From Candidatus Bathyarchaeota archaeon (GTDB lineage Archaea > Thermoproteota > Bathyarchaeia > Bathyarchaeales > DTEX01), in assembly GCA_018396405.1 (NCBI GenBank), contig JAGTQD010000009.1, forward strand, positions 1 through 34,546: a stretch of DNA of 34,546 nucleotides, read 5' to 3'. The notes beneath the pieces were generated by a model, which was not told the DNA's origin, searched no databases, and saw only the letters and a list, made by a program, of their open reading frames with translations. The position numbers and the translations under genes were made by a program. Shown piece by piece: positions 8,354 to 11,360 of the stretch; positions within the stretch are counted from its first letter, which is position 1; every line of letters starts with the position of its first letter.

Positions 8354-10738
8354 TCATCCCCAAGGAAAAGTTCTCTTCCATGCATTACAGAGCTCGTTTA
8401 TATCTGTGGTGATTGCAGGTTCATCATTAAGCCCATAAATGATGAAGAGTTCATCTTTTCTAACCCTGCCTATTAACGCGTAACGTACCCCTTTGGCAAT
8501 TGTCTCGAACTCTTCCCTACTGGATTCTGGAACCTCAGCTAAAAACCTACTATTAGACTCCGAAAACATTATGTAATCTTCTCTTCGGATCGGGGCGGCA
8601 TATGGAACATGCTTTAACCATATCTCCAAGCCGAGTCCCCCGGCAATGGACATCTCCGCAGCAGCTACGGCTAAGCCTCCCTCAGAAATGTCGTGGCAAG
8701 CCCTCACAAGCCCCCTGTCAATCGCCCTTCGAATAACCCTCATGTTCCGCTTAGCTTCCCTAAGCCTAACTTTCGGGACGTTCCTTCCAAGGTAGCCCTT
8801 AAGCCTATAATATTCTGAGCCTCCAAGCTCATTATATGTCTGCCCAACAATATATAATAGGTTCCCGGGCTCCTTAAGATCCATCGAGACTATTCTCCTC
8901 GTATCCGGAACTATTCCTATGGCTGTTATCAGTAGGGTTGGAGCAACTGGGCCGAGAGGGGACTCGTTATATAGGCTATCTTTCCCAGAGATAAATGGCG
9001 TACCAAAGCCCTTGGCAAATCTATAGCAAGCCATGCAGGCTTTCACGAGCGAACCAAGCCTGTCGGGTTTTTCCGGGTTCCCCCAAACAAAATTGTCTAG
9101 CAGGGATATTCTCCTTCCCCCGACTGCAACGTTGTTTCTTATGGCTTCATCAATCGCCGAGGCAGCCATCCAGTAGGCATCAATTTTGCCATATCTTGGG
9201 TTCAAGCCGCAGGAGATCACAATGCCCCTCCAAGAGTCGTCTAGTGGTTTTAAGACAGCTGCGTCGCTAGGCCCATTATTTTTTCCGCAGAATGGCTTTA
9301 AGACAGTATTCCCCTTAACCTCATGATCATATGTTCTAACAATAGACTCTTTGCTGGCAACATTGGGCGACGAAAGGATTCTAAGGAGATCTCCAGTTAA
9401 ATCGCTGGGCTTCTCTAAGTGTGGCTCATTTAGTTTGGGTTTAACGATCCTAGCATGCCTTTTAGCTACCGGGGGGCTGAAGAGGAATGGTATATCGATT
9501 TCAGCAACAATATGCCCCCTATAATAAATCCTTAAAACTTTGTCCCCTGTCAATCTGCCTATAGAAGTAGCCTCAACATCCTCGCTCCTAAAAATCTCTA
9601 TAACCCTATCCAAATTATGTTCTGGGACGGTTAACAACATACGTTCCTGGGACTCGGAGATATATATTTCCCAAGGAGCAATATTTGTATACTTCAGTGG
9701 GACTTTATCTAAGTTGACGATGGCTCCGCAGCCAAACTTATATGCGGTTTCTCCAACAGCACTTGAAAGTCCCCCGCCGCCTAAATCGGTTATTGATGTC
9801 GCTAGCTCCTGATCTCTTACGGCGATAATAGCTCTCCTGAGTTTCTCTTCTTCAATGGGGTTAGCTATTTGGACGGCTGGTCTAGAAACCTCCTCGGATT
9901 TCTCAGTTAATTCCAGGGATGCAAATGTGACCCCATGTATTCCATCCCTTCCAGTTCTATCACCAGCGAGGACTAGATGGTCTCCGGCCTTCGCCTTCTT
10001 AACATATTTGCTGATTGGCAATATCCCGACGCAACCACAATAGACAACCACGTTCCCAACGTAGCTCTCATCAAAGTATATGGCTCCGTTAACTATTGGT
10101 ATACCCATGTTGTTGCCATAGTGTCCTATCCCCGCGATAACCCCCCTGAAAATATACTTTGGATGTTTGATTCCGGAAGGAAGTCTAGAATAGTCATAAT
10201 CTAGTGGCCCAAAACCGAGGACATCCATGCATGCTATTGGGTCAGCCCATACGCCAAGTATATCCCGTATAACTCCGCCAATCCCAGTTGCAGCCCCGCC
10301 AAAGGGCTCTATAGACGAGGGATGATTATGGGTTTCAACCTTAACCGCTATACCATAATCTCTCTCAAAACGAATTATCCCAGCATTATCCTCAAAAACA
10401 GAAATACACCACGGTTTATTAAGCTCATACGTAGCCCTTGCTATAAATGTCTTGAACAGAGATTTGATTTCACGACCGTCTGGAAGAATAATTATCCCCT
10501 TAAACGTCTTATGATAGCAATGTTCACTCCAAGTCTGCCCAATTGTCTGTAGCTCAACATCGCTCGGATTCCTGCCTTTATGGGAAAAATAGGCTTTTAT
10601 CGCCTTCATCTCCTCAAGATTTAACGCTAAACCCATCTCCTCACTTATTTTGATAAGATCATTGTCACTCGCCTCTAGAATATTAATCTCGTATAGATCA
10701 AAGGGCATGTCTCTTTTAATATACAACTCTCCCCTCAA
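8354..10738 (-). CDS. purL: Phosphoribosylformylglycinamidine synthase, synthetase subunit PurL (small type)
   Basis: ATP-dependent FGAM synthetase. The 794-residue length fits the small PurL that works with separate PurQ and PurS. Visible landmarks are the SEHCYHKTF histidine region, the ATP/Mg-binding segment KVETHNHPS, the glycine-rich DLGGGGLSSAVGE, ISGKDSLYNE, and HDISEGGLAVAAAEM in the second half, consistent with the duplicated AIRS-like architecture. The TTG at 10738 overlaps the purS stop in a TTGA, a coupling arrangement; an in-frame ATG ten codons later is the alternative start. Confidence 0.96.
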   Translation of the reverse strand: MRGELYIKRDMPFDLYEINILEASDNDLIKISEEMGLALNLEEMKAIKAYFSHKGRNPSDVELQTIGQTWSEHCYHKTFKGIIILPDGREIKSLFKTFIARATYELNKPWCISVFEDNAGIIRFERDYGIAVKVETHNHPSSIEPFGGAATGIGGVIRDILGVWADPIACMDVLGFGPLDYDYSRLPSGIKHPKYIFRGVIAGIGHYGNNMGIPIVNGAIYFDESYVGNVVVYCGCVGILPISKYVKKAKAGDHLVLAGDRTGRDGIHGVTFASLELTEKSEEVSRPAVQIANPIEEEKLRRAIIAVRDQELATSITDLGGGGLSSAVGETAYKFGCGAIVNLDKVPLKYTNIAPWEIYISESQERMLLTVPEHNLDRVIEIFRSEDVEATSIGRLTGDKVLRIYYRGHIVAEIDIPFLFSPPVAKRHARIVKPKLNEPHLEKPSDLTGDLLRILSSPNVASKESIVRTYDHEVKGNTVLKPFCGKNNGPSDAAVLKPLDDSWRGIVISCGLNPRYGKIDAYWMAASAIDEAIRNNVAVGGRRISLLDNFVWGNPEKPDRLGSLVKACMACYRFAKGFGTPFISGKDSLYNESPLGPVAPTLLITAIGIVPDTRRIVSMDLKEPGNLLYIVGQTYNELGGSEYYRLKGYLGRNVPKVRLREAKRNMRVIRRAIDRGLVRACHDISEGGLAVAAAEMSIAGGLGLEIWLKHVPYAAPIRREDYIMFSESNSRFLAEVPESSREEFETIAKGVRYALIGRVRKDELFIIYGLNDEPAITTDINELCNAWKRTFPWG

Positions 10739-10989: not shown

Positions 10990-11065
10990 GAAATATAAAA
11001 AATAATAGCCAAAGGTAAAATATCTTTCTTTTTAAAATGAAAAGAAATCCTTAAGAATCTGGAGC

Positions 11066-11078: not shown

Positions 11079-11100
11079 TGTGGTGCGGCCGCCGTAACGT

Positions 11101-11124
11101 AGAGGTTGAATATAAGGGCCGCGG
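11101..11124 (+). other. Putative tRNA-His intron 1 (D arm, 24 bases)
   Basis: The bases between the 5' D-stem strand (ACGT, 11097-11100) and the D loop (AGCCTGGTA, 11125-11133). The AG at each end (11101-11102 and 11125-11126) makes the exact junction ambiguous by two bases, between tRNA positions 13/14 and 15/16. I could not establish a full bulge-helix-bulge splice motif by eye, so the call rests on the restored cloverleaf. Confidence 0.7.
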
Positions 11125-11141
11125 AGCCTGGTAGCGTACGG

Positions 11142-11171
11142 ACACCAGCACTTCCCGTGCTGGTGGTATAG
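11142..11171 (+). other. Putative tRNA-His intron 2 (anticodon stem, 30 bases)
   Basis: The insertion lies between positions 29 and 30 (or 28/29, since a G is shared at both ends). It is dominated by a perfect 9-bp hairpin CACCAGCAC (11143-11151) / GTGCTGGTG (11157-11165) with loop TTCCC. Removing it joins CGG to GC to give a 5-bp anticodon stem against GCCCG. The site differs from the common 37/38 intron position. Confidence 0.75.
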
Positions 11172-11360
11172 GCCTGTGGAGCCCGGAGGCCGGGTTCAAA
11201 TCCCGGCGGCGGCCTCCATTAATCCTCCTATATATTTGACATTGAGATATTTTCGGATATCCAAGCCGAGAGAAATTTTTCTTCGTTCATTTGTTTTGTA
11301 TAGGATGATATTGGATATTTTATATTTTAATAGTTTGTATAAATTCTGAAGAAATTCTGA

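What the first reader, a model, noticed from the sequence alone, without database searches (positions are those of the whole stretch)
11087..11214. tRNA-His split by two non-canonical introns, one in the D arm
The 128-base gene folds into a 74-base histidine tRNA, with the identity pair G-1:C73 and anticodon GTG, only if 24 bases in the D arm (11101-11124) and 30 bases in the anticodon stem (11142-11171) are removed. Neither is at the usual 37/38 site. Multi-intron tRNAs are known from some Thermoproteales, but a D-arm plus anticodon-stem pair in tRNA-His is unusual. The second intron is almost entirely a perfect 9-bp hairpin.
Basis: partly seen in the sequence, partly recalled or inferred. 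Interest (0 to 1): 0.75.

Follow-up and report, generated by a model that had tools for sequence, protein, structure and literature searches.

The report
Archaeal histidine tRNA with two introns
This is the gene for an ordinary histidine tRNA in an uncultured archaeon, but it is interrupted by two short introns at unusual places that the cell's tRNA-splicing enzyme probably removes; the kind is known, and what is new is this lineage, where relatives show such introns persisting and, it seems, being precisely lost.

Summary
Window 11087-11214 is a tRNA-His(GTG) gene with encoded G-1:C73 that becomes a normal 74-nt tRNA only after two introns are removed. The genome is a Bathyarchaeia MAG. Intron 2 (11142-11171, position 29/30) has both bulges, the central helix and the inner helix of a bulge-helix-bulge (BHB). 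Seventeen distinct D-arm introns and ten 29/30 introns keep the same splice geometry while their inner helices and loops change, and intronless orthologues confirm the exon junctions. The genome encodes a catalytic and a catalytically degenerate EndA paralogue, as expected for an (alpha-beta)2 splicing endonuclease. A second tRNA-His in the MAG is the orthologous locus of a contaminating species, and it too carries the D-arm intron. G007 (intron 1 only) is nested among two-intron species, so a precise loss of intron 2 is the simplest reading. Multi-intron archaeal tRNAs and site 29/30 are known, so this is a new member of a known kind. Splicing is inferred, not observed. In passing I found a conserved circularly permuted tRNA-Arg(GCG) in the same genome, probably the more novel object.

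The parts
11087..11214 (+). tRNA-His(GTG) gene, unspliced, G-1 to C73
11087..11102 (+). exon 1, G-1 to G15 (acceptor 5' strand, D-stem 5' strand ACGT = 10-13, A14 G15)
   Evidence: nearly identical in relatives
11103..11126 (+). intron 1, 24 nt, position 15/16 in the D loop
11097..11100 (+). BHB1 central helix, exon strand ACGT; pairs with 11121-11124 (GCGG), 3 of 4 pairs here, 4 of 4 in some relatives
11104..11120 (+). BHB1 inner helix GGTT (11104-11107) / GGCC (11117-11120)
11127..11141 (+). exon 2, C16 to G29
11136..11139 (+). BHB2 central helix, exon strand GTAC (24-27); pairs with 11166-11169 (GTAT)
11142..11171 (+). intron 2, 30 nt, position 29/30 in the anticodon stem
11143..11165 (+). 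BHB2 inner helix, 9 bp (11143-11151 / 11157-11165), loop TTCCC
11172..11214 (+). exon 3, G30 to C73, with anticodon GTG at 11176-11178
11042..11057 (+). probable BRE/TATA promoter element (AAGAAATCCTTAAGAA), similar sequence at a similar distance in genus members
   Evidence: inspection of the upstream sequences

Best explanation
This is a functional single-copy tRNA-His(GUG) gene of a Bathyarchaeia archaeon. It is transcribed as one precursor, and the archaeal splicing endonuclease (an EndA alpha-beta heterotetramer) cuts two local BHB structures. BHB1: exon bases 10-13 pair with the 3' part of intron 1, and the cuts are AG^A and AG^C. BHB2: exon bases 24-27 pair with the 3' part of intron 2, and the cuts are GG^A and AG^G. 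A ligase (RtcB type, expected from general knowledge, not searched for) joins the exons into a 74-nt tRNA. The two BHBs use the two opposite strands of the mature D stem (10-13 and 24-25), so each must be opened before the D stem can form. The BHB fit, the conservation and the presence of the two EndA paralogues are shown. Cutting, ligation and expression are inferred.
For: The mature form is called as tRNA-His and the unspliced form is not. BHB geometry holds in 17 distinct intron-1 and 9 distinct intron-2 sequences plus Hecatella orcuttiae L084, with inner helices that keep pairing while their sequence changes. Intronless orthologues, 95-96% identical over all 74 nt, exist in related genomes, and intronless orthologues score 56-61 bits as tRNA. 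Anticodon stem covariation: CGG/CCG in the window versus CAG/CTG in relatives. A promoter-like element lies upstream in the genus. Two EndA paralogues: one with the catalytic Y, H, K and the A. pernix-like loop GPGLEHAP (best PDB match 3p1z, E 7e-48), the other lacking the His. Each relative with a hit in the family has one tRNA-His.
Against: No RNA data. RNAfold does not favour BHB1 in the naked precursor (pair probability about 0) and gives BHB2 central pairs only 0.3-0.4. However, canonical 37/38 introns of the same genome mostly also score near 0, so this test does not discriminate. BHB1 in the window has an A.G mismatch at one of its four central pairs. No tRNA-His was found in three related MAGs: G003, G006, G009.
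Confidence: 0.93

Rival explanations
1. The gene is a decayed pseudogene with two insertions, and the working tRNA-His is another gene (for example the C79 copy).
For: A second tRNA-His lies on contig C79 of the same MAG.
Against: C79 repeats the same purS/purL locus at 75% identity to the window and is closer (84-87% over purS) to G005 and G007, so it is most simply the orthologous locus of a second species in a MAG with 4.26% contamination. It carries the D-arm intron itself. All exons of the window gene are intact and identical to G004, and the two-intron form is kept in seven genomes of the genus.
Confidence: 0.03
2. The D-arm insertion is not spliced out but retained as an enlarged D loop; only intron 2 is removed.
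For: The D loop tolerates some length variation, and BHB1 is imperfect in the window (3 of 4 pairs).
Against: Intron 1 fits BHB1 in all 17 distinct sequences (four of four pairs in four of them); the flanking exon is constant; clean intron-free orthologues exist in the same family. With intron 1 left in, ARAGORN does not call the full-length gene and gives only a shortened call starting inside the intron.
Confidence: 0.03
3. The insertions are remnants of a mobile element integrated at the tRNA gene, as proposed for Caldiarchaeum tRNA-Thr (PMC3293823). This concerns origin and can be true together with BHB splicing.
For: Two other genomes of the order hold partial tRNA-His copies that could be attachment sites (G025 C10, G027 C14).
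Against: No duplicated tRNA piece was found in the genome other than C79 and no integrase was recognised among the neighbouring ORFs by eye (not searched against families). Introns are 18-32 nt and hold little beyond the BHB.
Confidence: 0.1

Closest known systems
Multi-intron tRNA genes of Thermoproteales (Pyrobaculum, Thermofilum; reviewed in PMC4090602, PMC8450103)
   Same: Two or more short introns in one tRNA gene at non-canonical sites, BHB motifs, alpha2beta2 endonuclease; 29/30 is a listed site.
   Different: Different lineage (Bathyarchaeia). The D-arm site 15/16 is not among the sites named in PMC4090602, though that list ends in 'etc.'. Intron loops differ between species while positions are fixed.
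Caldiarchaeum subterraneum tRNA-Thr(GGU) with introns at 24/25 and 45/46 (PMC3293823)
   Same: Two non-canonical introns in one gene, one of them in the D arm; strains differ in intron number.
   Different: Other tRNA and positions; there a mobile element is implicated, here none was seen.
Split tRNA-His of Nanoarchaeum equitans (PMC2237900)
   Same: A disrupted tRNA-His gene whose parts are joined through BHB splicing.
   Different: Trans-spliced halves there; here one cis-spliced transcript.

Membership tests
Archaeal BHB tRNA intron | Two 3-nt bulges flanking a 4-bp central helix at the exon-intron junctions | tested here: met
   Intron 2: 4/4 pairs and correct bulges in all. Intron 1: 3/4 pairs in the window, 4/4 in four of 17 sequences, bulges in place.
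Archaeal BHB tRNA intron | Outer exon-side helix (h) of the full hBHBh' motif | tested here: inconclusive
   No clear outer helix seen by inspection for either intron; looks like a relaxed form. Not computed systematically.
Archaeal BHB tRNA intron | Removal restores a normal tRNA | tested here: met
   ARAGORN; intronless orthologues, 96% identical.
Archaeal BHB tRNA intron | Excision by splicing endonuclease and ligation in the cell | not testable with these tools
   No RNA data; EndA paralogues found.
Functional tRNA-His | GUG anticodon and G-1:C73 | tested here: met
   sequence; encoded G-1 at 11087, C73 at 11214.
Functional tRNA-His | Only or main tRNA-His of its genome | tested here: met
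   One per genome in family members with a hit; the second copy in the MAG is on a contig judged to be of another species.
(alpha-beta)2 splicing endonuclease host | One catalytic and one catalytically degenerate EndA paralogue | tested here: met
   C32 copy keeps Y, H, K; C20 copy lacks the His. Assembly of the tetramer not tested.
Group I self-splicing intron | Conserved catalytic core | tested here: not met
   No Rfam match in the window; introns of 24 and 30 nt are too short.

The most novel reading that the evidence does not exclude
This group of Bathyarchaeia is a further hot spot of tRNA gene disruption comparable in kind to Thermoproteales: a D-loop site 15/16 not named in the reviews read here, paired BHBs that occupy opposite strands of the D stem so that folding must wait for splicing, introns that persist at fixed sites while their sequence turns over, precise recent loss, and in the same genome a circularly permuted tRNA-Arg.
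Probability: 0.55. Interest if true: 0.55.

Novelty: new member of a known kind. Interest (0 to 1): 0.42.

Why it matters
The tRNA callers used here miss this gene, so such genomes can look as if they lacked tRNA-His. The set of close relatives with both, one or no intron at identical positions lets intron gain and loss in tRNA genes be followed species by species, including one well-placed apparent loss. It also extends the association of an alpha-beta type EndA with non-canonical introns to another archaeal lineage.

Tried and rejected
(1) ARAGORN and Rfam on the raw window and Rfam tRNA on the genome did not find the gene, as expected for a doubly interrupted one. (2) Thermodynamic folding of the precursor as a test of the BHBs: not diagnostic, because canonical introns of the same genome mostly also fail it. 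(3) A split or otherwise rearranged tRNA-His in G003, G006, G009 and G020: no fragments found with 5'- or 3'-exon patterns. G003 and G006 also lack a full-length purL hit, so the whole locus may be missing from those MAGs; G009 has purL, and no tRNA-His was found there. (4) A second intact tRNA-His in the organism: the only candidate is on a contig of another species. (5) A search of the held papers for Bathyarchaeia with tRNA intron, and Bathyarchaeota with permuted tRNA, found none; most subscription papers are not held, so this is weak evidence of novelty.

Full report
What is there. Window 11087-11214 reads GGCCGCCGTAACGTAG | AGGTTGAATATAAGGGCCGCGGAG | CCTGGTAGCGTACGG | ACACCAGCACTTCCCGTGCTGGTGGTATAG | GCCTGTGGAGCCCGGAGGCCGGGTTCAAATCCCGGCGGCGGCC. 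Joining the three exons gives a 74-nt tRNA with an encoded G-1 paired to C73, anticodon GTG and regular stems. ARAGORN calls it tRNA-His in the spliced form and calls nothing in the unspliced form. With only intron 1 removed it calls tRNA-His with a 30-nt intron; with only intron 2 removed it gives a shortened call that starts inside intron 1. This is why ARAGORN, Rfam on the window and an Rfam tRNA search of the whole genome all miss it.

Where it comes from. The genome is a 1.49-Mb archaeal MAG (completeness 95.6%, contamination 4.3%). Its close relatives with the same 3' exon are named Candidatus Bathyarchaeota and Hecatellales MAGs, including Candidatus Hecatella orcuttiae. The gene lies beside a purS-like and a purL-like ORF (names from my reading of the proteins).

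Exact splice sites. Orthologues in related genomes were collected by DNA search and by an exact 3'-exon pattern over named genomes. Intronless orthologues read CGTAG|YYTGG at the D-arm junction and C(A/G)G|GCC at the anticodon-stem junction. Among the intron-bearing copies only 15/16 and 29/30 give the same exons everywhere.

Splice motif. With these sites, both introns show the BHB layout. Intron 1: exon 10-13 (ACGT) pairs with the intron's GCGN (ACGG in L068); bulges AG^A (or AG^G) and A(G/A/T)^Y; inner helix of 2-6 bp. Seventeen distinct sequences fit; three of the four central pairs always form, and the fourth forms in four sequences but not in the window (A.G). Intron 2: exon 24-27 (GTAC) pairs with the intron's GTAT or GTAC (GTGC in L084); bulges (G/A)G^A and A(G/A)^G; inner helix 2-9 bp. 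Nine distinct sequences plus L084 fit. Loops and inner helices differ between species while pairing is kept. In mononucleotide shuffles of the intron an equally good fit arises in 15/20000 (window intron 1) and 0/20000 (window intron 2). A blind scan of the gene for BHB placements finds four, two of which are these.

A structural consequence. The exon bases tied up in the two BHBs are 10-13 and 24-27, which include bases on both strands of the D stem (10-13 with 22-25). The mature D stem therefore cannot form fully while either BHB is intact. This is a deduction from the geometry, not a measurement.

Folding energies. RNAfold does not favour BHB1 in the naked precursor and gives BHB2 central pairs 0.3-0.4. 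As a calibration I ran six canonical 37/38 introns of the same genome; five of the six also come out near zero, and the sixth reaches 0.3-0.5 only at 65 C. So this test neither supports nor refutes the motif.

Splicing enzyme. The genome encodes two EndA paralogues. The C32 protein is closest to the tRNA-splicing endonuclease chain of 3p1z/3ajv and keeps the catalytic His within the loop GPGLEHAP; the C20 protein lacks it. This is what an alpha-beta heterotetramer would look like, the type reported to accept non-canonical sites (PMC4090602, PMC7714728).

Copy number. A second tRNA-His exists on contig C79, with the D-arm intron only. C79 also carries purS and the start of purL, 75% identical to the window's and closer to G005 and G007, so the MAG most simply holds this locus from two species. 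Family members with a hit have one tRNA-His each.

History. On a purL tree the two-intron species of the genus group together. G007, which has intron 1 only, is sister to G008, which has both (support 100/99). Precise loss of intron 2 in G007 is the simplest reading; repeated gain is not excluded. The D-arm intron is present across most of the wider clade, with intronless members in genus g5 and in G031. G022 and Hecatella orcuttiae also have an intron at 29/30, so that site is either old or used repeatedly. A single-gene tree with open forks limits this.

Comparison with the known. Archaeal tRNAs with two or three non-canonical introns are known, above all in Thermoproteales, and 29/30 is a listed site (PMC4090602, PMC8450103). 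A two-intron tRNA-Thr with a D-arm intron is known from Caldiarchaeum (PMC3293823), and a split tRNA-His from Nanoarchaeum (PMC2237900). I found no paper in the held library on tRNA introns in Bathyarchaeia. I therefore file it as a new member of a known kind.

Side finding. While listing the other tRNAs I met a circularly permuted tRNA-Arg(GCG) at C2 of the same genome. Its 3' half lies upstream of its 5' half, joined through a BHB at 37/38, and it is conserved in six genomes of two genera with changing but complementary helices. None of those six genomes has a contiguous copy by pattern search. The permuted archaeal tRNAs reported from Thermofilum pendens are joined at 59/60 (PMC3218864). 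This deserves its own study.

Noticed in passing
G000:C2 about 9830-9950 (L062, L160); also L157, L158, L159, L161, L162: Circularly permuted tRNA-Arg(GCG): the 3' half precedes the 5' half, and the halves join by a BHB at 37/38 with complementary extensions that covary (e.g. GGACTCCAGC / GCTGGAGTCC in L157). Seen in six genomes of two genera, none of which has a contiguous copy by pattern search. Possibly more novel than the finding itself; the archaeal permuted tRNAs of Thermofilum are joined at 59/60 (PMC3218864).
   Followed up: partly
G000: L048, L058, L061, L063, L064: Other tRNA genes that appear to hold two or more introns, including insertions in the variable region. Intron boundaries not worked out.
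   Followed up: no
G000:C79 (L088): The MAG appears to be a mixture of two species: C79 carries a second copy of the purS/purL/tRNA-His locus, about 75% identical to the window.
   Followed up: yes
L150 (G028:C90): tRNA-His in a more distant family has an insertion at a different place in the D arm (after CCTGGTT), so D-arm disruption may have arisen more than once.
   Followed up: no
L145 (G025:C10) and L146 (G027:C14): Partial second copies of tRNA-His lacking a proper 5' part, possibly attachment sites of integrated elements.
   Followed up: no
G003, G006, G009: No tRNA-His found with exon patterns, although completeness is 87-94%; G003 and G006 also lack a full-length purL hit.
   Followed up: partly
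window 11215-11218: The base string TCCA follows C73 here and in many relatives; it is not an encoded CCA in register. Meaning unknown.
   Followed up: no
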